64,000 nucleotides of DNA from Cenococcum geophilum 1.58 (lineage: Eukaryota > Ascomycota > Dothideomycetes > Gloniales > Gloniaceae), in NCBI GenBank assembly GCA_001692895.1, contig KV748179.1, positions 3,795,222-3,859,221 of the forward strand. Direction: 5' to 3'. The notes under the pieces were generated by a model. That model did not search any database, was not told where the DNA came from, and was given only the letters and a program-made list of their open reading frames with translations. The first letter of the stretch is position 1. Each line of letters starts with the position of its first letter. Of the stretch, positions 17,490 through 47,270 are shown piece after piece. The translations under genes were made by a program, and so were the position numbers.

Positions 17490-18500
17490 ATGACGCCTGC
17501 TGCGTCGCATGAGGAATTCCAGTACCTCGAGCTCGTGCGCGACATTTTGGACAATGGCGAGCGTCGACCCGACCGGTTAGCTGTTGTCAACATCCAATGG
17601 CAAAGTTTGGACTTCAATTTCTGACATTTTTGACATTCCAGAACCGGCACCGGGACACTGTCTATCTTTGCACCCAGGCCCTTGAAGTTCCAGCTTCGAG
17701 AAAATGGGCGTCTAGTCCTACCTCTACTTACGACAAAGCGTGTTTTCCACCGTGCCGTCATCGCCGAGCTGCTCTGGTTTATTCAAGGCAGTACATCATC
17801 TCTGTCGCTTAGTGAGGCTGGCGTGAAGATCTGGGATGGCAACGGTTCCCGCGAGTTCCTCGATAGCGTGGGATTATCGCACCGTGATGTGGGGGACCTT
17901 GGACCAGTCTACGGCTTTCAATGGCGACACTTTGGGGCCAGCTACGTGGACGCATCGGCCGACTACACTGGCAAAGGCGTTGATCAACTAGCCAACATCA
18001 TACATACACTTCGTACGAATCCATACGACCGCCGGGTGATTTTGACTGCTTGGAACCCGCGAGATTTGCATAGCATGTCTTTGCCACCTTGCCACATGTT
18101 TGCTCAGTTCTACGTGTCGTTTCCAATGCAGGGACAGGCGTCGGAGGGGAGCATCGAAAACAAAGCGAAAGGTAACCTCCACTGTCAAATGTATCAACGG
18201 TCCTGCGATATGGGTCTCGGCGTACCATTTAACATTGCAAGCTATGCACTTCTGACGCACATGATCGCCCACGTTTGCGATCTGGCCCCTGGAAGCCTCA
18301 CACTTGTCATGGGGGATGCGCATGTCTATATCGACCATATTGATGCTCTTCATACACAGCTTGAGCGTGAGCCACGGACATTTCCGGAATTGGAGATCAC
18401 ATGCGACAAAGGTGGAAGTATTGACGGTTGGAAGGCAGAGGATTTTGTCATTAAAGGATACGATCCTCATAAGGCAATTGCAATGAAGATGGCTGTCTAG
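17490..18500 (+). CDS. CDC21: Thymidylate synthase
   Basis: This enzyme makes dTMP from dUMP with methylene-tetrahydrofolate. Exon 1 is 17490-17575 ([20 protein letters not shown]). A 66-nt intron 17576-17641 (GTTAGC donor, CTGAC branch, CCAG acceptor) splits an Arg codon. Exon 2, 17642-18500, continues [20 protein letters not shown]. The product is 314 residues, close to the roughly 300 expected. Visible landmarks are the catalytic Cys in [13 protein letters not shown], the nucleotide-binding [34 protein letters not shown] and the C-terminal KMAV. It looks complete and monofunctional, with no DHFR fused. The promoter region carries the inverted-repeat element ending at 17302. Confidence 0.96.
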
Positions 18501-18891: not shown

Positions 18892-21800
18892 ATGGCATTA
18901 GACCCCGCAGCTAGTAGACAAGAGACACAGACGACGACGACAACGGCAACGACGGCCCCGCCGCCGCCGGGCAAGGAGCTCTACCTGCTCGCCCTGGACG
19001 GCGGCGGCGTGCGCGGCCTGTCGGCGCTGCACATCCTCAAGCAGCTCATGGAGCTGGTAGACCCGGAGACCCCGCCGAAGCCGTGCGACTACTTTGACCT
19101 GATCGGGGGCACGTCGACCGGGGGCCTTATCGCCATCATGCTGGGCCGGTTGCGGATGAGCGTGGACGAGTGCGTAGCCGAGTACAAGCGGCTGTCAGCG
19201 AGGGTATTCACCAAAGTGCACCATCGCATGAACTGGAAGGGAAATGTGCAGGGACGGTTCGATGATGAGGCTCTCGTGCGGGGCGTGCAGGAGCTACTGG
19301 TGTCGAGGGGATTGGATAAGGATGCGTTACTGAAGGAACCGGCGGTCGGGTCAGCCTGTAAGACGTGAGTTTTTGTCTCGATCTGCTGTAGTAGTTCGAT
19401 TTTAATTTGGCGTTCGCATGGCGCTGAGTAGTCTGAATACAGTTTCGTCTGCGCTACAAGTAAAGATACAGGTGACACCGTCGTCCTGTCGAGCTATTTT
19501 TCGCGAAGGAGAGGCACGTCACTGTTGAATATCGCTAAGGTATGGGAGGCGGCGAGGGCCACTTCGGCAGCCAGCTCCTTCTTCGATTCGATTTACATTG
19601 GGGATGAGGGCTTCGTGGACGGTGCCAGCGGTGCCAACAACCCCATCGACGAGGTATGGTCGGAAGCCCGAGATATTTGGCGTGAGAGCGCCGGGTGGAG
19701 GTTGGAAGACAACCTTCGCTGCCTCGTGTCCATTGGGACTGGAGTGCCGACGCTGAAGCCCTTCGGGGACGACCCGATCAAGATCGGCAAGTCGTTGGTC
19801 GCCCTCGCCCTGGATACGGAGCGGAAGCACGACACTTTCCAGAAGCATCATTCGGGCCTGTTTCGAGAGCACCGTGCATTCCGTTTCAATGTCATGCGCG
19901 GCCTGGAGGATATCGGCTTGGAGGAAGCGGATAAGCAGGGNGCTATCGTCGCGGCGACGAGGAGGTACACGCAGGCTGAGGATGTCTACGACCGGATGGA
20001 GATGTGTGCGTGGGCTCTGCGCGACCGCGAATGTGCGTCTGTTTCCCGTTGATTCTGAGGAGGAAGCTTCTTGCCTTTGCGAGGAAAAAATGAATAAGGT
20101 CTTCCGTGTATGAGAGCTAATAATCCATTTCTGTCTTTTAGGGCTTTGGCAGATTGTGCAGCAAGTCTACTTGAATGTAAACCAACCCGATTTGTGTTGC
20201 CCACTTTCGGATCACACGCCTCACTCTGATGAGCACTTCATGCCCTACGCCAATACCTCTGTCTTTCGAGCGTGGTGTGAAAATAAAATATCCGGAATAC
20301 TATGTCGGCCGCCCTCGAATGCGCCATGGACCAACAGCTCTCTTGCCGCTTATATTCTTAACCAACTGTGCACCATAAAGCCGCGGCACTTGCTTAATGA
20401 CTTTGAAGAAATAGATTTCCTGATTGCCCATGTGCATTCTCCAGGAGACACTACCACAGAGCACCACCTATGGCTTTCGTTGCTTGGCCAATTCATTAAA
20501 AAGCTCATTGAGCGTATACTGAAAGACCGTGGAATTAGCCATCCGGATATAGCCTCGCTCCGCAGTTTAGACTATATATCGACCACACAACTTCCCATTG
20601 CCGCCTGTCAGCAGTTTTACGCAGTTAAGATATGGCGTTGGGAATATGCAAGCCAGCCAACTCTTCAAGATGTTCGAAGGGTTTTTGCTGGCTCGTCGAG
20701 AACCAGTCGTCGTTGTGCTATTAGGAACTATGGAGACAACACAATTCATGAAAATGCTAGGGGCACTCGCTGGAGAGTCCGCAACAAGACATATCAAGGT
20801 GCTGCTCTGTGGTGACGTGTATCCTTCGATTGCACCAGATTTCCGAGAGTTTCAGCTGATCGAAGCGGACACAGAGTACAAAGGTATAACAATGAATTAA
20901 CATGTCCCAGCCAAAATTGACTAGTTTGTAGAATGCTTACGGTCGCTCTACCTGGAAGGATATCGCGCCCGTCGGGACGAGGTGGCAGTACGTGAACCGG
21001 GAACGAACCAGTGGATCTGGAATCATCCTTCATACAAGGCCTGGGAAGACCTACAAGCTGGGGCGTTGTGTATCATAGGAAAGCCGGGCAGCGGCAAGTC
21101 AGTCCTAGCCAAAACCATCCAGGAGAGCCAATTTGCGAAGACGGAGGTCACGAGCTATTGGTTCTATAGTAAACGAAAAGGCGACCGGTTTACTAGCCAT
21201 GCCTCGCTCGTTCAAGCGGTACTTTACCAAATTCTGAAGGCAAATCGGAATTTTCTTCCATGCTACTATCAAGCATATCGAAAGAGCTACCCTGGGGTGA
21301 GCACCTGGACGATTGAGGACATGCGGCGCGTCCTCAAATGTCTCGTTGAACTCGGCAAAAGCCTCTTCTGTCTAATTGACGCCCTCGACGAAGCGGAAAA
21401 TGACACGATTATGGATATGGTTGGAGACCTCGTTTTCAACACTCCAAATTCTCGAATGAAACTCGTCATCCTGAGCCGTCCCTTAAAATGCTTCGAAAGA
21501 AAACCTTGGTTGGACTACAGCATCATTCTCCAACGAGAAAACCAGGCAGATGTCCAGAAGATTGTTGACACTGGGATGGGCCGTCTGCGGGCCGCTATAC
21601 ATTCCCCCGATAGCGAGGGTGAGGATGATGACGGTCCACCGCTTGTCCGCCGCGGAGTTTCCAAGACCTCTCCGGTGCATAGCAGACAACGAAAGACCTA
21701 CTACTGGAGCATTAAGACAGAACACCAGGAGCAGGCTGATATGAAGATGATTCGAGAAACCCTATTGTTCCGCTCGGATGGAGTGATTTTGTGGGTCGCC

Positions 21801-23771
21801 TTGTGTATTGAAGAACTTCTAAAGCTGGTCAGACGTCCTGTATTCAGGTTCAGCGAACTGAGAGACAGGATCAACAGCTTGCCGGGCGATATGACGGAGT
21901 TTTATGGGCAAATCGTCCGGGACTTGCAGTCTACTCTCAGTGAAGAAGATCTGATCATAACTCGAGAAACGCTAATGTGGGTATCCGGAGCAAGTGAGCT
22001 AAGAACATTTCATCTACAGGAGCTCTGGGACGCTCTCGCAGCTTCCTTGCCACACTCTGAACCCATACCAGAGGACGAAGATCCGATAGTCTTCAACAGG
22101 ATACCGATTAGCACATGGAATCGCTTTCGCCGTGCGCTCCAGAAACTCTGCGGCCCATTCATTGAGTTTAGACCAAACGAATTGGACGAGGATACTGAAA
22201 CAGCCTCGAAAAAGGAAGAAGCCCGTCCAGACTCCATTGTTCAACTGATGCACCAGTCGAGTAAGGATTTCCTAGGAGATCGTAAGGCGGCAGGGCCGCT
22301 TCATTTTACTCGGGAGGAAGCAAAAAGGCTGGTCACTGATGGTGTAATCCACTATTTAACAACATCGTTCCCTGATGCGACCGCTACCTACGTCCCTAAA
22401 CGCCTTTCTACGCCTGGCTCGATTAAATTCTGGAAATCGTCTATCGGTCACCTTGTTGCATACTTGGAGGATAAAAAACTGCTCCATTTTGCTCTACAAA
22501 TCTCTATAAGAGAGCGGCTAGGAGCGGAAGCGAATATAGCCAATGCTTCCGAGGCATACCTCTTACCAAAGTTGGAAAACTGCGACGACATGGAACTCCT
22601 GTCTACTTTCCGCGGATATGCTTTCGAAGAGCACTTTTCGGCGGTCGATGTTGCAGAATCCGCGATTGTCGGTAGACTTTTCTACCTAGCAACAACACAT
22701 GGCCTCCCAACTGCCGTCACCAACTTACTGGACATGTCCACGCTCATTGTCGACTGGTGGCTGCAGTACAGGAACAGCGTTCTCAACGCTGCGCTTTTCG
22801 CCGCGTTAGACAATGATATGAAGGACTTCGAGAAGGTATTATCATTCGGTGAGAGCAACGCCCAGCAGCGTGTTCGGCGGTTGGAATTGGATGGAGAGCG
22901 GGAGAAGTCCTCAGTCTATGCCAGAGACGGACTCTATCACAAATTGCGCAATCCACCAGTCCCTTCCTTTCCGGGCTTTCTCGAAGTTCTTCCCGGAGAT
23001 CTAGAGGACGTGAAGGTAGCCGTATCGCGGATAGTCGATCATTGGCGAGCGTTGGATCGCCCCGGTGTGATAGGCAGCATTGGTGTTTGTGCTCTTGATA
23101 GCAAAGTTCGGAGCAAAACAAGTATGAACATCTTGAGGCTCATGTCTAGGAGTGAATTTGGTATCATAATATTTGGAGATAAGGTTATATTAGATGAGCC
23201 TGTGGAAAACTGGCCTGTCTGTGACTTCCTTATTTCGTGGTTCTCAGAAGGGTTTCCCCTTGAAAAAGCGATCGCTTATGCAAAATTGCGAAACCCCTTT
23301 TGCGTAAACAATGTGCAGATGCAGATGGTATTCTGGGATCGGCGTTTAACTCTTAAACTCCTCGATCAGTTAAATGTGCCTACTCCAGAACGACTTGAAG
23401 TGAGTCGAGACGGAGGTCCTATGGTCCCTTCTGCGGAGCTGGCTCAGCACCTCTACTTGAAGACAGGATTACGTGTTGGGGGTCCTGGAAATGGCAACTT
23501 AAGCTCGCCGACCAGAAATGTCAGCTTGGAAGACGACGGCGACACCCTTGTCGTTGATGGGAAAAGACTAAGGAAGCCATTCGTGGAAAAGCCAGTGAAC
23601 TCCCTGGACCACCAGATCAATATATACTTCCCAAAGAGCCACGGCGGCGGAGGAAGACGACTGTTTGGAAAGATTAACAACAAGAACTCAGAGAAGGACA
23701 GCTCTCTTCACACGCCTAGAGCTGCAGGCTTGTTATTCAATCACCCAAGTTTCAATATTGAATTGAATTGA
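18892..23771 (+). CDS. Patatin-NACHT-VIP1 fusion, 5' part as now readable
   Basis: A chimeric STAND/NLR-type gene. Exons: 18892-19364, 19443-20032, 20142 to about 20623, about 20670-20883, 20932-23771 (the third intron could instead be 20607-20652); about 1,532 codons. Residues 30-230 are a patatin phospholipase: oxyanion DGGGVRG (36-42), nucleophile in GTSTGG (Ser 75), dyad Asp in FVDGASGANNP (near 217). After an unassigned linker comes NACHT: P-loop GKPGSGKS (about 636-643) and Walker B FCLIDALDE (about 734). A region resembling NLR winged-helix and early ankyrin sequence runs to about 1235. From about residue 1300 the same frame is VIP1/PPIP5K kinase: IGVCALDSKVRSK, FGDKVILDEPVENWPVCDFL, VPTPERLEVSRDGGP, KPFVEKPV, GGGGRRLF. 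The last 15 residues and stop come from the inserted transposon at 23725. An N lies at 19941. It may be expressed as a truncated protein or not at all. Confidence 0.8.
23717..23724 (+). repeat. Left 8-bp target-site duplication of the hAT element
   Basis: TAGAGCTG, identical to the copy at 24381-24388. Taking out the element and one copy leaves the flanking VIP1 codons in frame (Pro-Arg-Ala, then Val-Thr-Glu-Pro-Gly-Ser-Ser). Confidence 0.9.
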
Positions 23772-24380
23772 ATGCCAAGACTCAATCAATTCAATCAACT
23801 GAGAGCTCGCTGGCTTGGCAACTCAATCAATATAGAGGTTCTAGTTGAATTGAATTGATTGATAAATATTGAATCTTTTAATATTATATAGAAATATGCT
23901 GAACATAACATAATAATGCTTTAAACCTTATTGTTCTTAGACCCCCTTACCAAAAAAGGGTTACCCGAGCATTACTCGTTGTTTACACTATCACATTATC
24001 GCCGGGATCTTGGCAGGTAAGAAAAGTTTTATAACTAGATTTGCCCACCAACAATATCAATTCTATTACCACTATGAACAGGGGGTACACAACAGGATAG
24101 TAACTCAACACTATGCCAAGACTCGCGATAGACCTATATTAACGGCAGGAGCGACGGAAACGACGGTAGAAAGCGATTCGGGCGCCGCCAGGTAGGCCCC
24201 CCTGCATCAACACTATGCCGAGACTCGTGATAATTACTAACTACTACGTAGTTGCAATTAATTGCAATCGTTTCAATATTGAATCAATCAATTCAATCAA
24301 CCGAACCTTCTGCTTACAAAGCTTTCAATTCAATCAATTCAAGGCCTCAATTGAATTGAATTGATTGAGTAACAAGCCTG
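23725..24380. mobile_element. hAT-like non-autonomous transposon (MITE), 656 bp
   Basis: The ends are inverted repeats CAGGCTTGTTAYTCAATCA (18 of 19 identical) and the flanks are a perfect 8-bp duplication TAGAGCTG at 23717-23724 and 24381-24388; both are diagnostic of hAT elements. Subterminal TTGAATTGAATTGATTGA motifs occur in both orientations, as in many hAT MITEs. Two internal copies of ACTATGCCRAGACTCGYGATA lie near 24,112 and 24,211. No transposase frame is present. It inserted inside the VIP1 kinase domain of the fusion gene. Confidence 0.92.
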
Positions 24381-24388
24381 TAGAGCTG
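24381..24388 (+). repeat. Right 8-bp target-site duplication of the hAT element
   Basis: TAGAGCTG, the second copy; see the element at 23725-24380. Confidence 0.9.
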
Positions 24389-27011
24389 TTACAGAGCCTG
24401 GTAGCAGTTACATATACGAGAAATTCTTGCATGTCGAGAATGCGGAGGACGTTAAAGCGTACGCTGTTGGCCCATCCTTCTGTCATGCGGAAACAAGGAA
24501 GTCCCCAGTAGTCGATGGGATTGTCAGGCGTAACCTCCATGGCAAAGAAACTCGATATGTCACTATTCTCTCGCCCGAGGAAGCCGCGATGGCCTCCAAA
24601 ATCGTCGAAGCATTCGGCTAGACGGTTTGTGGATTCGACATTCTTCGGTCCAATGGGAGGAGCTTCATTAACGACATCAACGGATGGAGTTTGGCAAAAG
24701 ATAATAATGAATATTATGACAGATGCGCAGCCATATTGCAGCAGCTGTGTATTAGAGAAGGTCGCAGAGGCAAACTGCTTAGGCCCAGTGAGGAGATTCC
24801 AAGTTCCGGCAAAGACAAGTTGAACACCACTGGTGCTTCAGATCCTAGAGCTCCCTTGAATCCTTCACTCCGCCAAACAGAAAGCCCGGCAAGAGCCGAC
24901 CTTCCTCTACAACGTCAGAAATATGATGAGCCATATCTTACCATATTCAAACGCGATACTCTAGCCACGCAACTAGTCGATCTGGAAAGGCACTATACCG
25001 GGCCTCCATCAAAGAAATTGGCGCCCGAGTCAACCTTATCACCCTCCAGAGCATTTTCCGGTCAAAACCGGAAACGAAGCGAGAGCCCTCGAGTCTCATC
25101 CAATCATAATGCTGTTGATCCCCTTCTTCCGGTATCTACCGCTCAATGGAAGTTAAAGGGTATAGTTGCAATTCACAGCCATGGGGATAGCACTCCCGAA
25201 CAGAAGCTACAATTCATGTTCCACACGAAGCCGTTTGTTGACCTACTCGAAGGACATGGTAGCGAAGTTGTACTAACAGGGCAATCCGCCATTGGGCGCG
25301 TCCAGTCTGCACTTAATTCAGCTCTTGATGACGGCGCTGAGAATCTCAGAGACCTGGCACGACTGAAGGACGTGCTACGGAAGAGGGGCGACTTCACAGG
25401 CACTAAAGTGTTCATTAAGCCAGTGTTCCTTCATGGGGAAATGCAACCTAATACAGCAAGAGAATACTCCGAAACACATGAGATCAGGCAGGTTGGGCCT
25501 GAAAGGCTGCCACAGCTGTCTGGATCTTCGCATGACGCCGGATCACATCTAATCACATCGGACTTCGCGCAGAATAACCTCATTCCCCGGAAAGTTCAAC
25601 TAGTTATACAGTTGGGTAACGAACCCACCCACGCACTCCGTTATCAAGTACAAGAGTTGGGCGACAGCTTCCGCAATGAATTTATCCTAATGAATGCTGA
25701 ACTCCTGGATAATGTCTCTATATTTTGCAGTTCAGAACGAGCAGTGACATCTACTGCTCACATTTTCTCTGCTGCGTTCTTGAACGATAATGATTTCCCA
25801 GCAGACACTATCTCAGTGCGGAACGATATCCTCGGCGATTCAATAGCGGCCGATCGTCAACTGAATCAGGTCAACGGGAGGCTTAAGGTCCTCATTAGAG
25901 AGGGAACAGAAGCACCTCCTAATTTCGTTTGGCCGGCCAACACACCAGAACCATTCATTGTTTGGGGTAACCTGGTTGAGTTAATGAAACTACACAGGAA
26001 GGCAATGCTTAGCAATTTTTTCAAGTTGCTATCATATGCTAATGCAGCAATATCGAGCACAACTACCACACCCTCTCTCAATTCAGCATCATCCATCCAG
26101 CACAGGTGGTGTTCTGGAGAAGACGCGGACATGTTTAGGGATCGTTGGGAGCATATTTTCACCACGTTTTGCGACTCCGCGGAGATTCACCCATCAAAAA
26201 TCATCGAGCTCTACGACAATCTAAAGTTTGATGCGATACACAACCGACGATTCCTCGAGTGGTGCTTCACAGTGCACCCTAGTTTGCTTGAAGGTGGTGA
26301 TGGGAACATGGCCCACGCCAGGCGCCCCTTTCGGCTAGACAATCTCAACAAGCTGTACCATCTATGTAAAGTTCTATTTGACTACATATGCCCTCAACAG
26401 TATGGCATCACCAACGAAGAGAAACTTGAGATTGGCCTTCTTTCTTCGCTACCTCTGCTTCAGGAAATTGTCCGGGATATAGAGGAAATGCAAGCATCAG
26501 ACAGTGCGAAGTCGTTCTTCTATTTCACGAAAAGGTCGCATATATACACCCTTCTCAATTGTCTCGTCGAAGGAGCTCTTCAACCGAAGATCCCTCAACA
26601 TGAAATGGCCGAACTGGACAGCCTCTCTAGCATATGCTTTGAACTTTATGAGAACGAAAGTATGGCGCAGCAGAACGAAATGGGCAGCTTCAATTACAGC
26701 ATCAAGATCACGATGGGTCGAGGCTGCTACACATATGGCCCGCTGAATATGTAAGGCAGCAACCTCAACAACTATTTCCTTGCTTGTTACTAATGCTGTA
26801 ATAGAGTACTCGACTCAAGACACAGCGTTGGAAGTGCACAACGAAGGGATTTAACCGGGCACAACGACTGGAGAGAAGTAATCGAAGGGCTTCGCGCAAA
26901 ATTCCATACGTAAGCAATACCAACATCCGCTTAGCTAAATGCTTATGCCTTGCCAGCGTTAGGATACCTAAATCGTCCCTCTCTATTAACTTGTCTAAAG
27001 TTGACCGTTGA
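24389..27011 (+). pseudogene. VIP1: VIP1/PPIP5K 3' part: rest of kinase domain and phosphatase-like domain
   Basis: This continues the VIP1 frame past the transposon: [61 protein letters not shown] (24619-24621) then stands where the family has Gln, followed by TVCGFDILRSNGRSFINDIN. The kinase Asp and Asn of the D-x-N pair are kept. The histidine-phosphatase-like domain begins near 25,150, but the family's RHADRTP signature reads SHGDSTP, so both catalytic Arg are gone while His stays. After 26750 two introns (26751-26804, 26910-26956) lead to VLDSRHSVG, WREVIEGLRAKFHT and the stop at 27009-27011. Kept introns argue for a DNA-level copy, not a retrocopy. An internal ATG at 24691 could still give a 739-residue phosphatase-only protein. 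Confidence 0.85.
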
Positions 27012-27834: not shown

Positions 27835-28045
27835 TCGGCAAAATATGGTACCCTACCAATGGCCTCAATGGTTGGTGGTTGACGCAATTGGCGCGCAGTT
27901 GAGGGCATTTGGCAACTCGACCGACTAGCCTATGTCGTGTTTTTTTGACACGCAGCCTGCGCGCAGCCTGCGCGCAACCTGCGCGCAACCTGCACGCAAC
28001 CTGCAACCACAATTGTATTTAGAGCCATCCACCTCTTTTGTACCA
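27835..28045. repeat. Unmutated GC-richer island with 11-bp tandem repeat
   Basis: Within the AT-rich block this stretch keeps normal CpA/TpG content. From 27951 to about 28005 an 11-bp unit (CGCRRCCTGCG) is repeated five times. An ACCAATGGCC...GGTTGGT palindrome at about 27,855-27,880 recalls the hAT-element palindromes. It looks like a later insertion that escaped mutation. Confidence 0.55.
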
Positions 28046-28730
28046 ACAGTATATTTTAGATAATAAATAAAGGCTACTTTAAAGCTATTTATAAGGCTAG
28101 TAAGGCAAATTATATACACTTCTTTATATAATCTATTATATTATTTTAGATAATTTAATATAATATCCTAACTGTTTTATAATATATTCTAAAAGTATAA
28201 GACCTTTCCTGCTCTCCCTGCGACAATAATATACTATAAGTATTTAGCTTTATTAGCATAGCATATATATATAGCTAAAAAGTAGCTACTAAGAGTAGTA
28301 GATATAGGCCAAAAGAAAGGTAGATTAAGAGCTAGTATATATAATAAAGAAGCCGCAGTTATCCTATAGAAGAGTATAGAAAGTCTTATACCTAATCTTC
28401 TATTAAAAACTCTACCGGCTCCTCTATATTAGAGTCTAAAGTATATATTATAAACTTTATATACTGCTCCTTATTCTTAATTAAATTTAATATTACTTTT
28501 CTATTACTATACTAGCCATAGTTATCCTCTGCAAGGCTATAGTACTACTTAAATTGTGTAAATAACTTATTAGATTTAAACCTTTCCGGCCTAAGCTTAC
28601 TGGTTCCTATATTTAGGATAAAGTGGTATACTAGGGCAGAGGATATATATTCTGCTAAATCTAACAAACTTAGCTAGTTCTAAAAGTTAAATTAGTAAAT
28701 ATTGTAGTAGTAGTAAGGCCCTAGATTTTC

Positions 28731-28874
28731 TAGCTTACTCTAGGGCTCTTCCTTTAAGATAGACTTAGCGGACTAGTCTAGCCTACTCTAGAGCTCTTTA
28801 TTTGGGATAGACTTAGTAAACTAGTCTAGCCTACTCTAGAGCTCTCCCTTTAAGATAAACTTGGTAGATTAAAT
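28731..28874. repeat. 48-bp tandem repeat, three copies
   Basis: Copies at 28731-28778, 28779-28826 and 28827-28874, each starting TAGCYTACTCTAGRGCTC. Part of the minus-strand relic gene. Confidence 0.85.
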
Positions 28875-30176
28875 GGTATAGCCCGGCTTACTAATAAATA
28901 GCCTAAGTTAATAATCGCGTTAGTTTTATTGTCGCTAAGGCTTATAAGAAACCTCTCTCTTATATTATCACTTAGATCCGCTATAAGGTTATTAAGGTTA
29001 TCTTTATATAGGTCCTTAATAATTTCTATAGTTAATTAATCTAGCATTAGGCCTATAGTATATTTAATAACTACGGGCTAAAGCCGTAGCCAGATTCTAG
29101 ATTGCTGTTTTTTAGATATCTAGTTCTAGCTACCTAAGAGGTTAGCGTAGGCTTCTATAACGGGTTAGAGAATAATAATAGGTAATAAAACGCTGGATAT
29201 ATACTAACCGCTAATAACAGTGCTATAAAAGTTATCTATTCCCTTAAACCTAGTTCTATACTCCCTAATTACATAATATATTACTATTAAAATAAAAGTA
29301 ATAGTGTTACTAGTAAGCTTTTTAAACATATTATAAGAGTAGGGTAATTAGGTAAGGCCGTTTCTTCCTCTACTATAAAATATACTAGCTATACTAGCAA
29401 CTATTACGTCGGAACGGAAGCGGTTATTACTTAGCTATTAACTCTTATTAGTATTTTACTAAATAGCACGGGTAAAATACCTTTATATAATCTAGCGTAA
29501 TAAAATTATAATTAGTTAGTAGTTCTATAATTAGTTTAGGCGCGTTGTTAAACCCTAGCCTATATACCTCCCTTATAACTATATAAGCCTTTATAATCGC
29601 GTAGTTCCTAAAGTTCCCTATTGCGTTAAATAGCTATATATAATATTAAGATTATTAGTAAACAATTTAATATAATATTTCCAGTATATAAATACCTTAT
29701 AAGCGGACACCGGGTTAGGAATATAATTAGCTTTTTTTTACACTACTTTTAACTACTTTAAAATAGCTTCTAACTATACCTTTTTTATTATATCCTTAAT
29801 AAGGCCTAGAAAGCGGTTAAACTATAGGTTAATAAGATACCCGTTATAAGTCCCAGAGTTAGTTACTAGCCTTGCTAGTAAAATAGACCTATAAAGCGCA
29901 AATATAGGCTTATATCTCTTAGGTAGGTTTTCTTTTATACGTCGCCATTATAATATTTAAAGGTACTCTTCTCTTACCTATATTGCGGCAGTTAGGTCAA
30001 AATTGTTATAGTCTAACTTATCCTTACTTTCCCTAGTGCTATCTAGGTCCCCTTTAGATTAAACACTAAATTAGTATACTCTATATTAAAGGAAGGTTAC
30101 TTATTTCATAGACAAAGCTATATTAGGGTTTAGGCGAATACGGCTTACTAGGGAGAATATAAAGCTAAATATTGGT

Positions 30177-30296
30177 TATTTACGCGATAAGGTTTAGATT
30201 AGGCGCGCGGGAGAGTATTTTAAACTAGCACGCAATTATTTATATGGTAAGGTACGGATTAGGCATATAGGAGAGTATTTTAAACTAATACGCAAT
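30177..30296. repeat. 60-bp tandem repeat, two copies
   Basis: Units begin TATTTACGCGATAAGG (30177) and TATTTATATGGTAAGG (30237) and share GGAGAGTATTTTAAACTA. The period is 20 codons. Confidence 0.75.
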
Positions 30297-30600
30297 CGTT
30301 AAGAGCTGGAGGTATATTATAAAGATGCTGCTTTTTATAGTAGTAGGTGGTTAGATAGTAAAGAGAGTGTTTTATTTACTAGGGCTCGCCAAGTGCTAAA
30401 TAGTAGAGGAGACTATTAAGTATTATAGTTAGACTCCGGTTATATATAAAGGTATAACCTACCTTAACTAAAAGATTAGGACTTTATATTTTTAACTAAG
30501 CTAGTTCTACTGCCAGATTATTAATAGATTTAGTAAATTTATTAATATTTAGTTACTATCATTTCATAAAAGAAGCAGGTATAGACTTATAGTCACTATC

Positions 30601-30906
30601 CTTATTATTAGAGATTACCCTTTTTAGCTGGAGGCGGCTATATATATTCTATATATTATTAGCTAGCTTAATATATTATATACGACGTTAATAAGGTCTA
30701 TTATATGCCTACTCCTTTCTATGCCTAGATATAACTAGACCAGAGTTGCTATTCTTATTATTAGATATTACCCTTTTAAGCCAGAGGCGGCTATGTATAT
30801 TCTATATATTATTAGCTAGCTTAATATATTATATTTAACGTTAATAGGGTCTATTATATACCTGCTCTTTTCCACACCTAGATATAACTAGACTAAAGTT
30901 ATAATA
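30601..30906. repeat. 153-bp tandem duplication
   Basis: Units begin CTTATTATTAGAGATTACCC (30601) and CTTATTATTAGATATTACCC (30754). The period is 51 codons; on the minus strand both copies read an IQYIKLANNIQNI-like segment once TAG is read as Gln. Confidence 0.8.
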
Positions 30907-30913
30907 TTACTTA

Positions 30914-30985
30914 TTTTAGCTAGGTTCTATATACTCGTTCTAGCTAGGTTTTATATACTTATCCTAGCTAGGTTCCATATACTTA
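30914..30985. repeat. 24-bp tandem repeat, three copies
   Basis: Units at 30914, 30938 and 30962, core TAGCTAGGTT. On the minus strand they encode an eight-residue K-Y-x-x-P-S-Q-x repeat in which Gln is now TAG. Confidence 0.75.
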
Positions 30986-31100
30986 TTCTCCATTAGCGCG
31001 TTCTTCCTTCCGTTAGCTAGGACATAGGCAACTCCTAGCAGTAGGCTAGGTAGAGATATAAGGTTAATTATACTAGTTATCCTTATTTCCTTATTTTACG

Positions 31101-34100
31101 TTAACTTAAAGTAGGGTTCTTACTACTAGTTTAAGTATTTAATAACGCGTTTTTACGTTTACCTACTATAGTAACACTCCTATATTTACCTAGTTAGTAA
31201 AAGGTATAGCTTATAGCTAGAATAGGTTACCTTATAGCTATTTCTATAATATCTAGGGCGTATATAAATTAATAACTTAAAAGAATATATACTGGTATAG
31301 TATATATTAGACTAATAGCAGTATTAGTAGGAGTATTATTGCTATAGTGCTTATAAATAACTTAAATAGGGGTGTATTTATTATAATTAGCTGCTAGTTC
31401 TAACCGGTTACGGTTAAGCCACAACTATAACCTATTAACTCGCGTTAAGTTAGTAGTTAAAAAAACATTATTATATAGTTAAAGATTATTTAATACTATT
31501 TGCTATTATACGCGAAACTGTTTTATTCTATTAGTATATCCTTTAGTAGATACGGTATATGTATACAAAAGGTTAAACGTTAATCCCGGTAACAAAAGTA
31601 GTAGGCTAATAAGGCTCGTGTTTAAATTTAATAGGGAGGTACCTTATTAAACCACTTTACCTACCTAGGGCGCTAGCTTTTAGATCCTATACCTTATTCC
31701 GGTCTACCTACACCAGGTTTAACACCCGTCTTACGCTTAAAGCGAAGCTTATCCACCTTATCCATATAGCTCGCTAATATAGATAATGCTAGGGTAGGTA
31801 TAGGCGGTATATAGGACAGCAATTACACTTCTATATAGTTATATCGCTATATTCCACACCCTTATACAATACCTAGTATTTCTACCGCAAATATCCAACG
31901 TTATTCTTCTATATTATTAACCCCGCCAGCCTATAATAAGCCTAACCTATCCCCTATATATATATCGCAACAGCAATTAAATTTAGTAGAATAGTAAGGA
32001 AAGCGTAAGTATAGATATAAGGATTAGGTATTAGATACTAAAAGCGAGCCAAAGACGGTGTTAATATATATTACCCCAATAAGTTCACTAAAAAGAACAG
32101 GTATAAACCTTAGGCTTTATCGTCTAATCCCCTTAGGCGTTTTAAGAATACCAGATAAGTTATAAGAATATCTTAGGTTATATTATTTTAAGACTCCCTC
32201 GCCTAATAGTATACTAAGGGGCTCTATTAAGCCGTCTACCTTTATATATAGTAATCTATTAAACTAGTAAGCATTCTAGATAAAGCAGTAGCTTTAAGGC
32301 GCATAATCTATACTACGGTTATAGTTGCCTTCGCCTTTTCTATTACGGGTTAAGGCGTAGAGTAAGGGCTCTTTTTTAACTAGGAGAGGTTTTTTGGGAC
32401 AGCTATAGGTCAAGTATCGCCTTAGTATTAACCCGTTTACTAGTTCTACCTATTCTTATATATATAAAGTGCGAGTTATCTAGTAAAGGCAAGAGTGCGG
32501 AAATAGAGGGTAAGTGATTGTATTATTCTTAGCTAGTAACGTAGACTATAAATATAAGTTAGTGACGCTGGCTTAACTTTAAGCAGTAACCTACTTATTT
32601 TTCTTTGTTCTATTATAAATAAAAACCTATCTATTTTTTTTATAGAAATATATCCTTAACCATACTGCGCCATTTCTCTTTATTTATAAGCTAAATTCGT
32701 CCTCTAGCTATTTTATTACTAACGTAGTAGCAAAGCGTTTCGCTTTTAGGGTTAAAGTTAATATCCTAGCCTAGTATATTTATAAATATATTAAAGCTTA
32801 GATTATCAACGTGTATATCTAGAGTATTATTCTTACCAGTCGCTAGCTTTCGGGTTAGGATAATTATTAGCTCTTTATTAGCTGCCCGCCGGATTAGTAT
32901 TATTATTGTTCTATATAACCTTAGTATTCCCTCCTACCTTATTACCTTTAGTATACCGGCCGGTAGATAATACGTAATAGCGGAGTGTGGGAGTACTAGG
33001 TTGCCTATTATAATTTACCTAATAAGAGCTGTTTTATTTATTTAACGCGTTGCGTTATAGCTGCAGCGCTAGGTAAGCTATTTAATATATTTAGTATATA
33101 GGTTTTTAGGTAAACCTAAAAACATAAATAGGAATTCGTTGGAGATTTTATTTAATATTTGCTATATTTATACCTTACTTATAAGGGAGTATAGTGGCTA
33201 TTTAAGGAGCCCGCGCGTTAATATTTTAATTTTAACATTATAGTAGATTATATTATATTATTCGTTCATAAGCCCTAGATCTTACTTAAGAGTGTCTTTA
33301 GTATTATAGCTTAGGTCTATTATTAGTGCCATAATTCTAAAAGCGTTAGGGGAGGTACAGTAGGAAAGACGTCTTAATTACGCGCTAAGACCGATGTATA
33401 GAATTATATAGATAGGTATATTGTTTAGTTATTATATAAAATAATTAGTTAAATGTCTTATAAGAAATAAATAAGCGTATTAGTAAACGCTTTTTTACCC
33501 GCTATACTACCTAGACTTACAACCTCCTATCCTTTTTACGTCTCCGTTTATAAGCTTAATTTAGCACCTAAATTTGTTAATACTTTTTTTATATATATTT
33601 TTTATATATTTATTATATTATACTATATATAATAATGCGTATACAGCCTTTAGGCTATAGTGCTATAGTTCTATATATATAAATCCTTTCTAGGCAGCTT
33701 AATATATACTAGTAACTATATTTACTAATACTTTAAGACGCCTAGTTAGCCTATAACTGGTGGAGCCTAGTTAGCATAATTAGAGGTCCTAACCTCTACT
33801 AAAATACTTAATATCCCTAATAAGGGCTAGAATATTATTAGCGAAAACGGAGATATTCCACTATAAGTTAATAAGATCTTAGGTCTATATAGCTTAATAA
33901 AGGAGTATCTAAGCTCTTAATATAATCTTTTAAGAGAAGATACGATTAAACCGTTAAAAGAAGTAGTAGGTTAAATTAAAGTAGACCCTTTTTAGTTTAC
34001 TAAAATCTAGATATAGTAATGGAGTCGGTATATATAAATAGGTAAGCATGCTATAATTCTAAAGCAGTTATCCCCTGACATCTGCAAGGTCTATATTAGC

Positions 34101-34989
34101 TTAGTAATATTTTCACCTTAAGGGCTAGTAATCTACGTGGCGTTCTTACTTAGGAGAGTAGGGAAGATAATCCATTAGGATTAGTTAAAAAGACTAGTCA
34201 CTAGGTCTCTAGTTGCTTTAACTCCTAAGACTAATAATTTTTGAATAAAATATATACTTATAATAGTGGTAGTAAGACTATTGGCCGTATTAGAATAGAA
34301 TCCCCTAGAGATTAACTTATTCTTTAAGACCTAAAGATATTAAGATTAACTTATCTATATTATAAACAATAGTTAAGGAATGAACTAGATTTTATAAAGT
34401 TAGTTACTATACTATATTAGCATTATAAAAGCTAATAAGAGAGCCGTAAGTATATAATGTTTTCTAAATAAAAAGATATCTAACCACTAATAGATTCCCG
34501 TTATTAGAATACCTTATTTAAGTTTAATAAAATATTAAAGTACTATAATACGTTATAAATAAGCCTTATATAGATCTTAGTTTAATTATAGCTATTAAGA
34601 ATGCTTCCTTATTTAAGAATGTTTATATTCTTAAAGACTGGTTAGATATAACTACTATAAGGCTTAATAAATCTTAAGCTACTATATTAAAACGAGTTCT
34701 TATAAAGCGTCTTATAATAATCTAAAGACCTCTAGATACTAGAAAAACGTGGCTTTAAAGGCATTACTTAGCAATATAATAATGGGAGATCCCCCTATTA
34801 TTATCATATATTATACAAACTATGCGCTAGACTAGTTATTTGGGTATATTACTTAAAGTAATATATACTTTATAAAATTTCCTAGTACTTCTAACCGTCT
34901 TAATACTATTGCTTATACGGATAGACGATATTACACTATATTAGGCGCCAGGGCCATAGAAGTAGAAAAAAGAGGAAGTGTTAGGGCTC
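31101..34989. other. AT-rich stretch without recognisable gene
   Basis: Both strands are broken every few dozen codons. Translations with TAG/TAA read through give protein-like pieces on both strands, but none I can assign. I saw no terminal repeats or tandem arrays of note. Confidence 0.4.
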
Positions 34990-35412
34990 CCTCTTTTTAT
35001 ATCTTATATTTTATTTTTTTATATTATCTTATATTATCCTACCATTGTCCTACCATTGTGTTATATTGTCCTATATTGTTCTATATTATCCTACCATTAT
35101 ATTATATTATCCTGCTATTATATTATATTGTCCTGTTATTATGTCACATTGTCCTGCCATTGTGTTATATTATCCTGCCATTATATTACATTATCCTGCC
35201 ATTATATCACATTATCCTGCTATTATGTTATATTATCCTATTATTACCCTACTATTATATTATATTATCCTAACATTATCCTACTATTGTCCTGCCATTA
35301 TATTATATTATCCTATTATTATCCTACTATTGTGTTATATTGTCCTGTTATTGTCCTGCTATTATATTATATTATCCTATTATTGTCTTATATTGTCCTA
35401 CTATTGTCTCGG
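34990..35412. repeat. Minisatellite of a 16-26-bp TATCCTGCCATTATATTA-type unit
   Basis: About 420 bp of irregular repeats of TATTATCCTRCCATT with variable TATAT spacers. Because the array has few stops, three overlapping plus-strand frames stay open through it (up to 154 codons); these are low-complexity artefacts rich in Ile, Leu, Tyr and Cys. Confidence 0.85.
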
Positions 35413-35627
35413 TACTGCTATATACTTTTTACCATTTACTAAGATTATAATTATAGGTATTTATCAGCCAGGATCCGGGTAATAACTCTTAGCAGTAATT
35501 TTACTGCTCAAATCTCTTGTAGATTAATTAATTGGCGTAGAGCCATTATATTATAGTAAAGCTATATCTAAGCAATCTATATTATAATCCTTGGCATAGT
35601 GTTATACATAGAAATATTTAATTGTTA

Positions 35628-35740
35628 GATTTAGGAAGGTATTTATATTTTAATTAAATTTATAAGACTATAACTAAGGGCCTTTATAGCGTAGTGGTAT
35701 AGTAAGTTCTATAATCGCTTTAGTTTAGGGTTACTTAGTC
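35628..35740 (+). repeat. Dispersed repeat with tRNA-like A box, copy 1
   Basis: Shares TTTAGGAAGG, AAATTTATAAGA and CCTTTATAGCGTAGTGGTATA with the copy at 36120-36240. TAGCGTAGTGG fits a pol III A box (TRGCNNAGTGG). It could be a mutated tRNA-derived SINE head; no convincing B box follows at the right distance. Confidence 0.4.
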
Positions 35741-36119
35741 ACTGCAGGAAAGTCGTAATACTTAACGTAGTGTTAAACTTAAGGTGCCTTGCCACTATAG
35801 TGGCAGAGATATAGCAGATTAACTACTTACTAAAATATGGCGCCCCCGTTACTATAGTAGCTACTATAGTAATAAAGATACCCTATATTTATAAATTTAG
35901 ATTCTATATACAGTATAGCTTGCGAATTTAACGCGCTTACTAATTTGGAGGAGCTTTTAGATTAGAAAGTCGCTAAATTAACCAAACGATCGCGTTAAAA
36001 TTAGATTTAAGCTTTAGCTTAGATATATTCTGCGGCCTTTAGATTTAATCTAAAGTTGTAACCAAACGTTCCCTAAGATTTAATGTAGGGATCTCTCCCT
36101 GAGGATCTAGTTTAATTAT

Positions 36120-36240
36120 AAGGTTTAGGAAGGGGTTATGATTTAGTTAAATTTATAAGATTACATTCTAAAGTCCTTATAGTGTAGTAGTATAGTATAT
36201 TCTACCTTTTGCTATAATTTAGAGCTAGCCTAACGTAATT
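36120..36240 (+). repeat. Dispersed repeat with tRNA-like A box, copy 2
   Basis: Second copy, with CCTTATAGTGTAGTAGTATA at the A-box position. Similarity to copy 1 runs for about 100 bp. Confidence 0.4.
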
Positions 36241-36409
36241 AAAACTTAATGTAGAAGAGCTAATATGCTTAGTATATAGTGCTAAGATTTCGTTAAATGT
36301 ATAACTTTAGGCGTTGTGGGATACGTATAAAAATATAAGCTTAATTTAGAGCCTTACTAACGCCTAATTTAATAGGAAACGACCTTCTTTTTTAATATTT
36401 TTGATATTT

Positions 36410-36490
36410 TTAATACGCGATAAGTAGGAATTGAACCCGCCACGCCTAGGAGTTAAATACGCGACGTCTAATTGCTTAATTTGGCTAGGA
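36410..36490 (-). other. tRNA-like remnant with B-box match
   Basis: On the minus strand, GCGGGTTCAATTCCTAC fits the pol III B box / T-arm (GGTTCRANYCC) and is followed by TTATCGCG, like an acceptor 3' strand. Upstream TAGCCAAATTAAGCAATTAG is A-box-like. A matching 5' acceptor strand is missing, so it is not a functional tRNA gene; a SINE or tRNA relic is possible. Confidence 0.3.
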
Positions 36491-36726
36491 GGCTCGGCGG
36501 CAATGCAATAGGGCTCGATGATGTAATAAGGCTTAACGGCGATATAATAAGACTTAGTAATATAATAAGACTTAACGATATAATAAGGCTTAGCGATATA
36601 ATAAGGCTCGGTAATATAATAAGACTTAATAATATAATAAGGCTTAGTAATATAATAAGGCTCGGCGGTAATATAATAAAACTTAATAATGCAATAAGTC
36701 TTAGCAATATAATAAGGCTTAGGGCT
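36490..36726. repeat. 18-bp minisatellite
   Basis: About 13 copies of an AATATAATAAGGCTTAGT-type unit with some 21-bp variants. It keeps frames open on both strands (79-86 codons), which are low-complexity and not taken as genes. Confidence 0.85.
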
Positions 36727-36739
36727 AGGTAATGAGGGA

Positions 36740-37989
36740 AAGATTTAAGGTTGCTTAATTACTAATACCTAATAGCAAAATCCAACGGTATAGTACTGCT
36801 ATTAAGGTGTTCTAATACGGGTAGGTTATATAAAGGTTTTATCCATAATATATCTAATATATCCCAAAAGTCTACCTTTTACTTATCTTTAAGGTTAAAT
36901 TTCTGGCCTATAATAAATTAAATATTATAGTTGGTAAGAGCACGATAAATAATAGCATATTTTGCCCTGTCGTTCTTAAAACCGTTAAACACGAAGTAGT
37001 AGGTAGTCTATTAACTTATATCTATTAGTGCCAGCTAATAAAGTGCCTTTAAAACGTACCAATATCGATAATAGCCCTTTTATTTTGCAGCATGATAAGC
37101 TTAATAGCAATGGGGTTTCGGTCCTTATAATTAAGTACATTTATCTAGCAGAGCCAGGTTTGCCAATTATTCCAGTTAGTATTGTGTTATAGGTTAATTT
37201 AATATCTTACACTAATAGAAAAAGGCAGGAGGTAGATTAAATAGAATAATTAGGGTACGCTTTTCTTCGCCGTTAGGGATTTTATATAGACGTCGCACAG
37301 TATACGGGTAGGAGCTAGTAGTCGTTAAGACGTTATAGGCAGTAGTGAAAGTTTTATACGGGATAGTGAGATCTTGAAAACCACTACTAACGGTTCCCCC
37401 TTATAGCAGATAACTACGTATATACGCTATAACTATGTAATTAGTAGACGAAAGCGGTAGTTATAAATATTAGTTTGTCTATTTTAATGCTGTCTTGCTT
37501 TTTATAATAATTTAAAATATAGAGGGAGCTTTAGTTACGGGATGATCCTCTTATATACTAATTAGGCTTTTAGAATAATAAAGATGGCATATATATATAG
37601 TCTATTAGTAAAAAGGATATACCTTAATAGGAATTGTTAATGTATATTAGGAACGAGAGTTAGTAAGGTTATAGGCTAGATTACTTAATAGGTGTTAAGG
37701 TAGTTAGTAGCCGGAGTAATATTAATCTAGACAAAATTTAAACTTTTTAAGGTTTAGTTAGTTATAAGGTGGTTAATACTAAGATAATATATTATAAAAT
37801 ATTAAATAGTTACATATTGTCTATATATGTGTATATTATACTAAGACATACTCTTATTATAGGGGGTTACTGCTCTAACTGCACCAGCTACGCTATTTCC
37901 ATTATATTATCATTAGCCTACTAAGTAGGTTGGGCTTTAAACACTTCGTAGAACTTATTAATCGTTATCCTTTTAGTTATTATATGCCT
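36740..37989. other. AT-rich stretch without recognisable gene
   Basis: The minus strand gives some protein-like pieces (for example LINVLNYKDRNPIAIKLIML-like around 37,110-37,150) that could belong to a further relic, but no family is recognised and no repeats are seen. Confidence 0.35.
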
Positions 37990-40900: not shown

Positions 40901-41570
40901 AAAAGCACTGTAAATGCTAGGTTTATATGGTTAAGAATTAGTGTACCAGTAGTTAGATCTACTATAGTCCAGCTATCCCTATATTTATCCGCTAAGAAGT
41001 TTTCACTTATTACGGCCTGCAGCTTGTTATATCCATAGTAATATATATTAATTTTCTCTAGAGAATCAAACAATAGATACTTATACTTAGTTTTTAATAT
41101 AAATCCGTATAGAATAGGGGCCCTAGTGAATAGCGTTTTGTCTAGGTAACTATATATAGCAAAGCTTATTTTATAGAATGGTATAGGTATAGTATTTAGC
41201 TATTATAGGGCTTTAATAGACAAATTATTAAGTACCTAGGTAGCCTCAGAGGTTACCCTTAATCTAGATAAGTCGATAGACTGCTCTCTGAAAGACAAGG
41301 CGCCACGCTTTTAAATAGTATTAGTTATTATAACCTCCACGCCTTTATATCTGTTGGTCGTTACATATCGCTATATAGATTTTTTAGCGGCGATAGCGAA
41401 AGCTTTAAACTTTGATGGTAGATTAAATCTCTTAAACACGTGCCTATACTTAGTGTTAAGAAGGTTAAAGACTATACGCTTAACTCCATTTTGTATAGGT
41501 CCGGACGTTAGCAACCTACTACTAGACGCTTTATTAATTTCGCTAGTACAGTATTAGAGGATTTCACTGT
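37990..41570 (-). pseudogene. SNF2-type helicase relic
   Basis: On the minus strand, near 39,946-39,990, GGTFFADTMGLGKIL is the SNF2 motif I/Ia (family GGIFADEMGLGKTLQML), with TAA where Gln is expected. Near 38,150-38,200, REEGLNLVFIYRVHLLKP followed by EV-stop-VFG-stop-AARSRQ matches the C-terminal helicase lobe (EGLNL, then Q-x-x-GRAxR). Both lobes are in order over about 2 kb. Upstream, the stretch 41073-40813 is still an open 86-codon frame. Many TAG/TAA stops at Gln positions and Ns at 38,686-38,742 make it non-functional as read. SNF2-like genes do occur inside fungal repeats; whether this was host or element-borne is not visible. Ends are approximate. Confidence 0.65.
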
Positions 41571-42115
41571 ATGTTTTTTTGTTAATTATAAGTCCTTACT
41601 ATAGCTTTAGACTACTTATTTACGATAAGTTCTTATTAGTCGCAGTAGTTAAGTACTAACTAGATTCTAAATATAGCGCCGCTATTATAGTTAGGGACCC
41701 TATATATTTATAAGCGGGTAAAAGCTTAATATAGAATAGTATAGAGTAACTTATAAAGATAGTAAAGCGGATAATATATTAGATAATTAGCAATAATACA
41801 ATAAGATAATCCTAACAGTTATAATAAGAAGGTGTGCTAATGGTGTTAACTTAAGATAATAGCGGATGCTAACAAGAGTAATCTAAGAGTAATATAAGAA
41901 ATAGAACGGAATATAAGTCTTAACGTAAGAAGTAGGATGAGATATAAGCTTTAATATGGGCAGTAGAATAAAATATAAGACTTAAAGTAAGAAATGGAAC
42001 AAAAGGTGCGTGGTAAGATAAGATATAAGATTTATACTACTAACTAAGTGAATAATAATAAGAGAGCTAATAATTCTATTCTTTGTATTATAACTAGTTA
42101 GTAAAGCAGCTTTAG
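41571..42115. other. AT-rich spacer with imperfect repeats
   Basis: From about 41,870 to 42,050 imperfect units of roughly 50 bp share AATATAAGTCTTAA-like cores. No coding signal seen. Confidence 0.4.
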
Positions 42116-42458
42116 AGAGATAGGGAAATAAGTTTAGGACAATCTAAGACATTAAAAAATATCTAAGATTATACAAAAAAGTGAAATATAATATGGCATT
42201 TTATTCCATAAGTGTAAGGTAAGGTAAAATACATAGTAGAGAGAGGTAGGGGGATAATCTAAGACATTATGAAAGGTCTAAGATTGTATAAAAAAAAGTG
42301 AAATATAATATAGTATTTTATCCTATAAGCGTAAGATAAGGTAAAGTGTATAGTAGAGAGAGGTAGGGGGATAATCTAAGATATTATAAAAAGTCTAAGA
42401 TTGTACGAAATAAAGTGAAATATAATATAGTATTTTATTCTATAAGCGTAAGATAAGG
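42116..42458. repeat. 116-bp tandem repeat, about 2.8 copies
   Basis: Landmark AATCTAAGAYATT at 42141, 42256 and 42373 (periods 115 and 117) with the shared GTGAAATATAATATRG block. Confidence 0.88.
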
Positions 42459-43015
42459 CTTTAGGATACCCTTTTACCTAAAATATAACCTATTTTTAAG
42501 CTATATTACTGATAAAGCAACTTTTTTTTAGGTAAGCTATTACGTCTACTATATAGGTAACCCAAAACTAGTATCCTAGATCCTACTTATAGCTACTACG
42601 CCTTATATTAAAGATATTCGCTAGACTTATTTATATATAGGTCCCGTAGTCCGAATTATATATTAAGCTATCCACAACACAGCTATTGTTACTCTAGCCC
42701 TATAACACCGTACTCTTATTTATACGCCTTTTTCTTCTATTTTCTGCTATTGTCCGCTTGATCTTTTAAACTTCTATAGCCGCCTAAACCGATACCGCAG
42801 CCTCTTTATCTTCAAAAACACAACTATATTAAGCTTGGCTTAGCCTCAATTTCTCTTTAAAAACATGGCTACGTTAAGCTTACCTTAGCCTCAATTTCTT
42901 TAAACGCATACTGCCTAGAAATATATCCCGCCTTGCACGACTACTATAAGCTCTACCTATAATATGGCGTCTAGTGCCCTAGCGCAAAGCAGGCTCTCTT
43001 AAAAGCCGTATTATA

Positions 43016-47210: not shown

Positions 47211-47270
47211 TTACGTTATTATATAGAAGCTAGGACAAATAGTAAAAGCAGCTAAGCTAGTATAGAACCT

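What the first reader, a model, noticed from the sequence alone, without database searches (positions are those of the whole stretch)
18892..27011. Patatin-NACHT-VIP1: an NLR-like gene fused to an inositol-pyrophosphate kinase
Seen: one frame runs from patatin and NACHT motifs straight into VIP1/PPIP5K kinase sequence (junction between about 22,860 and 23,070), and after the transposon and one stop continues through the whole VIP1 phosphatase-like domain with matching introns. Known: fungal NLRs usually end in ankyrin, WD40 or TPR repeats. I know of no description of a VIP1 sensor or effector on an NLR. Inference: the ankyrin array was replaced by a DNA-level copy of VIP1. If once functional, the kinase could have acted as an integrated decoy or as a second-messenger output in heterokaryon incompatibility or immunity.
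Basis: partly seen in the sequence, partly recalled or inferred. Interest (0 to 1): 0.88.

Follow-up and report, generated by a model that had tools for sequence, protein, structure and literature searches.

The report
Fungal immune-type receptor fused to VIP1
A fungal immune-type receptor gene carries, at its tail, a copy of an inositol-pyrophosphate enzyme whose phosphatase half lost its active site long ago; the join is seen in other fungal sequences, but the copy in this genome was recently broken by a transposon.

Summary
The fusion is real and old. One ORF (20,982-23,771) encodes NACHT, a helical tail and the start of a VIP1/PPIP5K kinase; the rest of VIP1 follows after a 656-bp transposon and one stop. 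A protein from an independent assembly, with the 48-nt intron removed, crosses the join at 100% identity; a metagenome protein, 62% identical, crosses it too. A VIP1-like protein of Lophium mytilinum keeps the NLR-tail/VIP1 join and the same dead-phosphatase motif. Close NLR relatives share the tail but lack VIP1, so VIP1 was appended and replaced no ankyrin array. One normal VIP1 locus was found elsewhere in the genome.

The phosphatase was lost ancestrally (15 identical changes shared with Lophium at otherwise invariant sites) while kinase sites were mostly kept. Later the window copy lost a substrate-binding arginine and Lophium its metal ligands. Best mechanism: an integrated sensor or decoy on a patatin-NACHT receptor. 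Rivals: an IP8-making output, or a decaying accident; no copy intact from NACHT through VIP1 was seen. CHK2-like kinases on Sordariales NLRs are the precedent, so this is a new variant of a known kind. The organism is probably Cenococcum geophilum (inferred).

The parts
18892..20032 (+). Patatin exons 1 and 2 (18,892-19,364 and 19,443-20,032; intron 19,365-19,442)
   Evidence: PF01734 in both pieces; tblastn of patatin-NLR proteins at 48-53% identity; splice sites read from sequence
20142..20669 (+). Linker exon between patatin and NACHT, after intron 20,033-20,141; the frame changes at about 20,600-20,670 by a 46-nt intron or a 1-nt shift
   Evidence: three-frame translation and candidate introns; unresolved
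20670..20883 (+). Exon that leads into NACHT; P0001 starts at 20,670
   Evidence: tblastn of P0001
20884..20931 (+). 48-nt GT-AG intron, absent from P0001
21000..21479 (+). NPHP3_N/NACHT NTPase domain with P-loop GKPGSGKS
   Evidence: PF24883, 2.8e-25; AlphaFold2 model confident there
21480..23057 (+). Helical NLR tail, ending with helix DLEDVKVAVSRIVDHWRA (about 23,001-23,057)
   Evidence: alignment with NLRs lacking VIP1; model
23058..23070 (+). Join of NLR tail and VIP1
23064..23724 (+). VIP1 kinase, first part (PPIP5K2_N 23,079-23,339)
   Evidence: PF18086, 2e-33
23725..24380 (+). 656-bp transposon (non-autonomous, hAT-like) with 11-bp perfect inverted ends; target duplication TAGAGCTG at 23,717-23,724 and 24,381-24,388
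24388..24705 (+). VIP1 kinase, second part, with in-frame TAG at 24,619-24,621
25150..26670 (+). VIP1 histidine-phosphatase domain; catalytic motif reads SHGDS at 25,177-25,191 where canonical copies have RHADR
   Evidence: PF00328, 2.3e-37
26751..27011 (+). C-terminal introns 26,751-26,804 and 26,910-26,956 and the last two exons, same places as in canonical VIP1

Best explanation
A patatin-NACHT NLR to whose natural C-terminal tail a whole VIP1 kinase-phosphatase was appended, before the lineages of this fungus and Lophium parted. SHOWN by sequence: the join, its recurrence, the ancestral loss of the phosphatase catalytic arginines, and upkeep of the reading frame over long divergence. INFERRED: the VIP1 part served the receptor as an integrated sensor or decoy. 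It kept the VIP1 shape (perhaps nucleotide or inositol-pyrophosphate binding), so that something that attacks or binds the cell's real VIP1, or a change in IP7/IP8, switches the NACHT domain; oligomerisation then frees the N-terminal patatin lipase to damage membranes in incompatibility or defence. In this genome the gene was recently disabled by a transposon and a stop.
For: Join crossed by P0001 and P0002 and kept in Lophium P0256 (E 3e-6 for its first 61 residues; 54% identity through the join). RHADR is SHGDS in both window and Lophium; 176 of 177 proteins matched by the motif search have RHADR; alanine at these positions of yeast Vip1 greatly reduces hydrolysis (PMC11836120). 15 identical changes shared at phosphatase-invariant columns. 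Lophium lacks the equivalents of Asp1 Asp321 and Asp333, both essential for the kinase (PMC9765450). Kinase-invariant columns kept: 112 of 126 and 111 of 127. One stop in 1,012 codons against about 13 expected neutrally at 75% identity. Precedent: C-terminal CHK2-like kinases on NLRs (PMC12258605). The dead phosphatase of Lophium still models as the yeast Vip1 phosphatase fold (TM to target 0.88).
Against: No copy intact from NACHT to the VIP1 end was seen: the window is broken, P0002 leaves the VIP1 frame, and the Lophium model has no NACHT. No attacker of VIP1 and no ligand is known. The window kinase keeps its metal ligands, as an output enzyme would. Fused branches are very long, which also fits relaxed constraint, and warns that the joining of the window and Lophium branches could be false.
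Confidence: 0.45

Rival explanations
1. Second-messenger output: the fused VIP1 is a kinase freed from its phosphatase. On receptor activation it makes 1,5-IP8 as a toxic or alarm signal; the kinase was lost later in single lineages.
For: The phosphatase was lost first and in common, the kinase was kept longer: 15 against 2 identical shared changes at invariant columns, and more kinase than phosphatase invariants kept (112 of 126 against 85 of 120 in the window). Overexpressed yeast Vip1 kinase domain alone is lethal on low phosphate (PMC11836120 section 13); fission yeast asp1 mutants without phosphatase range from sick to dead (PMC10865970 passages).
Against: An N-terminal effector (patatin) is already present; Lophium has lost both metal ligands; the window has Gly at a 5-IP7-contacting arginine. 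The fission yeast phosphatase active-site mutant H397A is benign, and full-length Vip1 was not lethal when overexpressed.
Confidence: 0.2
2. Accidental fusion, decaying: readthrough joined an NLR and a VIP1 paralogue, and the VIP1 part is tolerated ballast, lost piecemeal.
For: All three fused-type sequences show damage or lack a part (insert and stop in the window; frame break in P0002; no NACHT in the Lophium model). The phosphatase part has lost 35 of 120 invariant columns in the window. One stop does occur among the simulated neutral runs at 90% identity.
Against: Join kept at 62% protein divergence and in Lophium; kinase-invariant columns kept far above the less conserved columns (112 of 126 against 45 of 70); about 13 stops expected at 75% identity, one seen; the insert is young (nearest copy 99.7%).
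Confidence: 0.3
3. Assembly artefact or chance neighbours.
For: One ambiguous base lies in the gene (19,941).
Against: Independent protein P0001 and the divergent P0002 cross the join; Lophium keeps it.
Confidence: 0.02

Closest known systems
Sordariales NACHT NLRs with a C-terminal CHK-2/PRD-4-like protein kinase (putative integrated decoys; PMC12258605, passages)
   Same: C-terminal copy of a conserved signalling enzyme on a fungal NACHT NLR, kept in a clade
   Different: There the kinase follows a complete tripartite NLR (canonical C-terminal domain present) and is a protein kinase; here an inositol-pyrophosphate kinase-phosphatase follows a non-repeat tail, with the phosphatase site dead
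VIP1/Asp1/PPIP5K bifunctional kinase-phosphatase
   Same: Whole domain order, most kinase-invariant residues, C-terminal intron positions
   Different: RHADR is SHGDS; fused behind an NLR; lacks the canonical N-terminal extension; kinase site damaged in the window and dead in Lophium
Lophium mytilinum BU16DRAFT_454830 (P0256)
   Same: NLR-tail/VIP1 join and dead-phosphatase motif
   Different: Gene model has no NACHT; kinase metal ligands lost; phosphatase and kinase frame open over 1,025 residues
Patatin-NACHT fungal NLRs such as P0021, P0022, P0028
   Same: Patatin and NPHP3_N domains in one protein; 48-53% identity in patatin, 26-32% from NACHT on
   Different: No VIP1 domain in their tables. 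PMC4986451 (passage) reports patatin almost invariably with NB-ARC, so patatin with NACHT is itself the rarer pairing there

Membership tests
Fungal NLR (patatin-NACHT) | N-terminal effector domain (patatin) | tested here: met
   PF01734 on two exons; but continuity of the frame into NACHT is unresolved at 20,600-20,670
Fungal NLR (patatin-NACHT) | Central NACHT-type NTPase with P-loop | tested here: met
   PF24883 2.8e-25; the PF05729 NACHT model itself matches only below its cut-off (18.3 against 26.7 bits); GKPGSGKS in the translation
Fungal NLR (patatin-NACHT) | C-terminal repeat domain (ANK, WD40, TPR) | tested here: not met
   No repeat domain found by Pfam; helical tail instead, as in the 16 relatives aligned
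Working PPIP5K/VIP1 enzyme | Kinase metal ligands and substrate cage | tested here: inconclusive
   Window keeps Asp321, Asp333 and Asn335 equivalents but has Gly for Arg223; Lophium has lost the former three
Working PPIP5K/VIP1 enzyme | Phosphatase RHxxR motif | tested here: not met
   SHGDS in window and Lophium
NLR with integrated decoy | Copy of a conserved cellular protein fused to an NLR, the original kept elsewhere | tested here: met
NLR with integrated decoy | Fusion retained across species | tested here: inconclusive
   P0002 has NACHT and VIP1 N-part; Lophium has tail and VIP1 only; neither is shown intact from end to end
NLR with integrated decoy | The original protein is targeted by a parasite or incompatibility factor that the fused copy senses | not testable with these tools
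   Needs interaction and cell-death assays
hAT-like non-autonomous transposon (the insert) | Inverted ends and 8-bp target duplication | tested here: met
   11-bp perfect ends; 8-bp duplication here and, clean, in 10 of 12 further near-full-length copies; the rule 8 bp = hAT is recalled, and no transposase was sought

The most novel reading that the evidence does not exclude
NLRs of this fungal group coupled self/non-self surveillance to inositol-pyrophosphate signalling: a phosphatase-dead VIP1 was wired to a patatin-NACHT receptor, first perhaps as an IP8-producing output and later as a pure sensor or decoy, making the phosphate-signalling hub VIP1 a guarded target in fungi.
Probability: 0.3. 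Interest if true: 0.9.

Novelty: new variant of a known kind. Interest (0 to 1): 0.72.

Why it matters
Integrated decoys are well known in plant NLRs and were only recently proposed for fungi. A whole inositol-pyrophosphate kinase-phosphatase with an ancestrally dead phosphatase would be a new sort of integrated domain. It would point to VIP1/IP8 signalling as something that fungal parasites or rivals attack, probably in a lineage with the ectomycorrhizal Cenococcum, where phosphate signalling should matter. It can be tested in laboratory yeasts.

Tried and rejected
Rejected: misassembly. Rejected: replacement of an ankyrin array. Rejected under the models used: a recent copy of this genome's VIP1, with a long-branch warning. 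Rejected: a retrocopy (shared introns).

Little use: the AlphaFold2 model of Lophium (mean pLDDT 59.5; kinase part poor, phosphatase part like yeast Vip1, TM to target 0.88 for 9grh) and that of P0001 (poor over the truncated kinase; its PDB matches are mainly ORC/Cdc6-type ATPases and plant NLRs). The patatin-NACHT frame question stayed open. DNA of P0002 and the Lophium locus could not be fetched (metagenome scans capped at 0; no fungal genome collection held), so dN/dS between fusions was not computed. In one search only 120 of 1,471 hits were listed and Lophium was not among them, so further distant fused-type copies may be hidden. Viral and bacterial contig collections were not searched.

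In print, as far as searched: the listings (20 of 235 papers; 17 of 17; 20 of 42; 8 of 9; 4 of 4) show no title on an NLR-VIP1 fusion. Passages of PMC12258605, PMC4986451 and PMC9815663, searched for inositol, kinase and phosphatase (Vip1 in the first only), show no such fusion. Supplements, with the list of 185 non-canonical domains, were not readable.
Full report
What is there. Pfam assigns patatin to 18,892-19,368 and 19,525-20,049, NPHP3_N, the NACHT-type NTPase family (2.8e-25), and PPIP5K2_N (2e-33) to one uninterrupted ORF, 20,982-23,771, and His_Phos_2 (2.3e-37) to 24,625-26,751. The ORF ends inside an insert. Behind it VIP1 resumes at 24,388 and runs, with one TAG at 24,619-24,621, to 26,751. 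Two short exons follow to a stop at 27,011; their introns lie where those of the genome's canonical VIP1 lie. The fused VIP1 is therefore a DNA-level copy of the whole kinase-phosphatase, without the canonical N-terminal extension.

The genome. The window lies in an assembly of 177,193,698 bases in 162 contigs. One other VIP1 locus was found there, on contig C2, with an intact 1,267-residue frame. It is 79.6% identical to that of Lepidopterella palustris, its best match among the 206 proteins then held. That paper places Cenococcum in Mytilinidiales; NCBI puts it in Gloniales, and Lophium and Lepidopterella in Mytilinidiales, all in Pleosporomycetidae. The NLR has no close paralogue: of 57 places listed, the best other one is 38% identical.

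The join is real. Protein P0001 (source lgn, 20 member sequences, 8 contigs) is 100% identical to the ORF over its full length. Against the genome it lacks exactly the 48-nt GT-AG intron 20,884-20,931, and it ends at the stop inside the insert. Of 24 lgn VIP1 proteins whose ends I read by eye, 13 end at or run into an intron, so the collection holds plain ORF calls; a protein without the intron then most likely comes from a transcript. Of the other 11, most contain the C-terminal exons, one of them (P0091) from a 39,890-bp contig; these may be genes without those introns, but a splice-aware call is not excluded. P0002 (jgi metagenome, unnamed organism) is 62% identical over 754 aligned positions from NACHT into VIP1: NACHT core 262 of 367, tail 82 of 154, join 24 of 57, VIP1 103 of 168 identical. 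P0002 leaves the VIP1 frame after RLRK; whether this is an error or a true break cannot be told.

Where VIP1 was added. Aligned with 16 NLR proteins without VIP1 (a selection from P0003-P0020), the window's tail is homologous up to the last helix, most clearly with P0003-P0008. Those six run on for between about a dozen and some 90 residues of their own; in the window VIP1 begins there, at about 23,058-23,070. The AlphaFold2 model gives that last helix good confidence (block means 89 and 81). The tail was extended; nothing recognisable was replaced.

Lophium. Among the 102 hits of the phosphatase part, P0256, a Lophium mytilinum protein of 1,025 residues, is of the fused type. Its first 61 residues match the window's NLR tail (E 3e-6 against 86 proteins), and the alignment runs through the join at 54% identity (147 of 270). 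Its gene model holds PPIP5K2_N and His_Phos_2 but no NACHT. Whether a NACHT lies upstream in that genome could not be checked.

Trees. Window, P0002 and Lophium form one group on the N-terminal part (100/99, 36 rows), window and Lophium on the full length (100/100, 34 rows). Forcing them together with the canonical copies of this genome and Lepidopterella is rejected (p 0.0002; without Lophium p 3.8e-7). The fused branches are very long, and the program warns that the meeting of the window and Lophium branches, and their placement, may be false. The shared join and shared residues below support the grouping independently. The age of the VIP1 duplication stays open.

Catalytic sites. Of 177 proteins matched by the phosphatase-motif search (294 held), 176 read RHADR; the exception, Lophium, reads SHGDS, as does the window. 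In yeast Vip1, alanine at Arg547, His548 or Arg551 greatly reduces hydrolysis (PMC11836120, passages). Among 120 phosphatase columns at least 99% conserved in 145 canonical rows, the window differs at 35 and Lophium at 46; 26 are common (13.4 expected if independent) and 15 hold the same new residue. Loss of the phosphatase site is thus most simply ancestral. Of 126 such kinase columns, 14 and 16 are lost, 3 in both (1.8 expected), 2 with the same residue. The window keeps the equivalents of Asp1 Asp321, Asp333 and Asn335 but has Gly at Arg223, a 5-IP7 contact; Lophium lacks the first three. Kinase-invariant columns kept: 112 of 126 in the window, 111 of 127 in Lophium, 46 of 52 in the short stretch of P0002; less conserved columns (60-90%): 45 of 70, 31 of 64, 20 of 38.

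Selection and recent loss. The two VIP1 pieces together hold one stop in 1,012 codons. Neutral simulation of a canonical copy gives on average about 6 stops at 90% identity to the ancestor (fewest 1), 13 at 75% (fewest 5) and 23 at 50% (fewest 15), 60 runs each. Identity to the canonical copy is 54% over both parts, with 27% of second and 62% of third positions changed. The insert is a 656-bp element with 11-bp perfect inverted ends and an 8-bp duplication. Twelve further near-full-length copies at 96% or more were seen, the nearest 99.7% identical; 10 of the 12 have a clean 8-bp duplication (counts of repeats are lower bounds). This fits a young, hAT-like non-autonomous element. The frame was kept open for long and broken lately.

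How it most likely works. Fungal NLRs carry effectors N-terminally and the regulatory, recognising part C-terminally, and patatin is a cell-death-linked effector (PMC4986451, passages). With patatin in place, a C-terminal VIP1 whose phosphatase is dead, and whose kinase is dead in one lineage and damaged in the other, is best read as a sensor or decoy. The precedent is the CHK2-like kinase on Sordariales NLRs (PMC12258605, passages). The rival, IP8 output, gains from the order of events (phosphatase lost first, kinase kept) and from the toxicity of unchecked VIP1 kinase in yeasts, though the fission yeast phosphatase active-site mutant H397A is benign. A decaying accident is the third option, because no copy intact from NACHT to the VIP1 end was seen.

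Limits. The patatin-NACHT frame is unresolved. No experiment, read data or population data were available.

Noticed in passing
window 28,000-48,000: A block of about 20 kb with G+C near 0.27-0.35 directly beside the gene, against about 0.45-0.53 elsewhere; N bases at 38,685-38,744. Looks like an AT-rich, repeat-mutated isochore.
   Followed up: no
window 23,725-24,380; L027-L046: A family of about 656-bp elements, 13 near-full-length copies at 96% or more including this one, and many half-length relatives, active lately in this genome.
   Followed up: partly
P0144 and P0170 (Talaromyces): VIP1 gene models of 2,384 and 2,692 residues that also carry PF05057; perhaps merged neighbouring genes, perhaps further VIP1 fusions.
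   Followed up: no
window 17,682-18,500 +: Thymidylate-synthase-like ORF (name by eye) directly upstream of the receptor gene.
   Followed up: no
P0272: A VIP1 protein filed under 'Candidatus Bathyarchaeota archaeon', probably fungal contamination of a metagenome bin.
   Followed up: no
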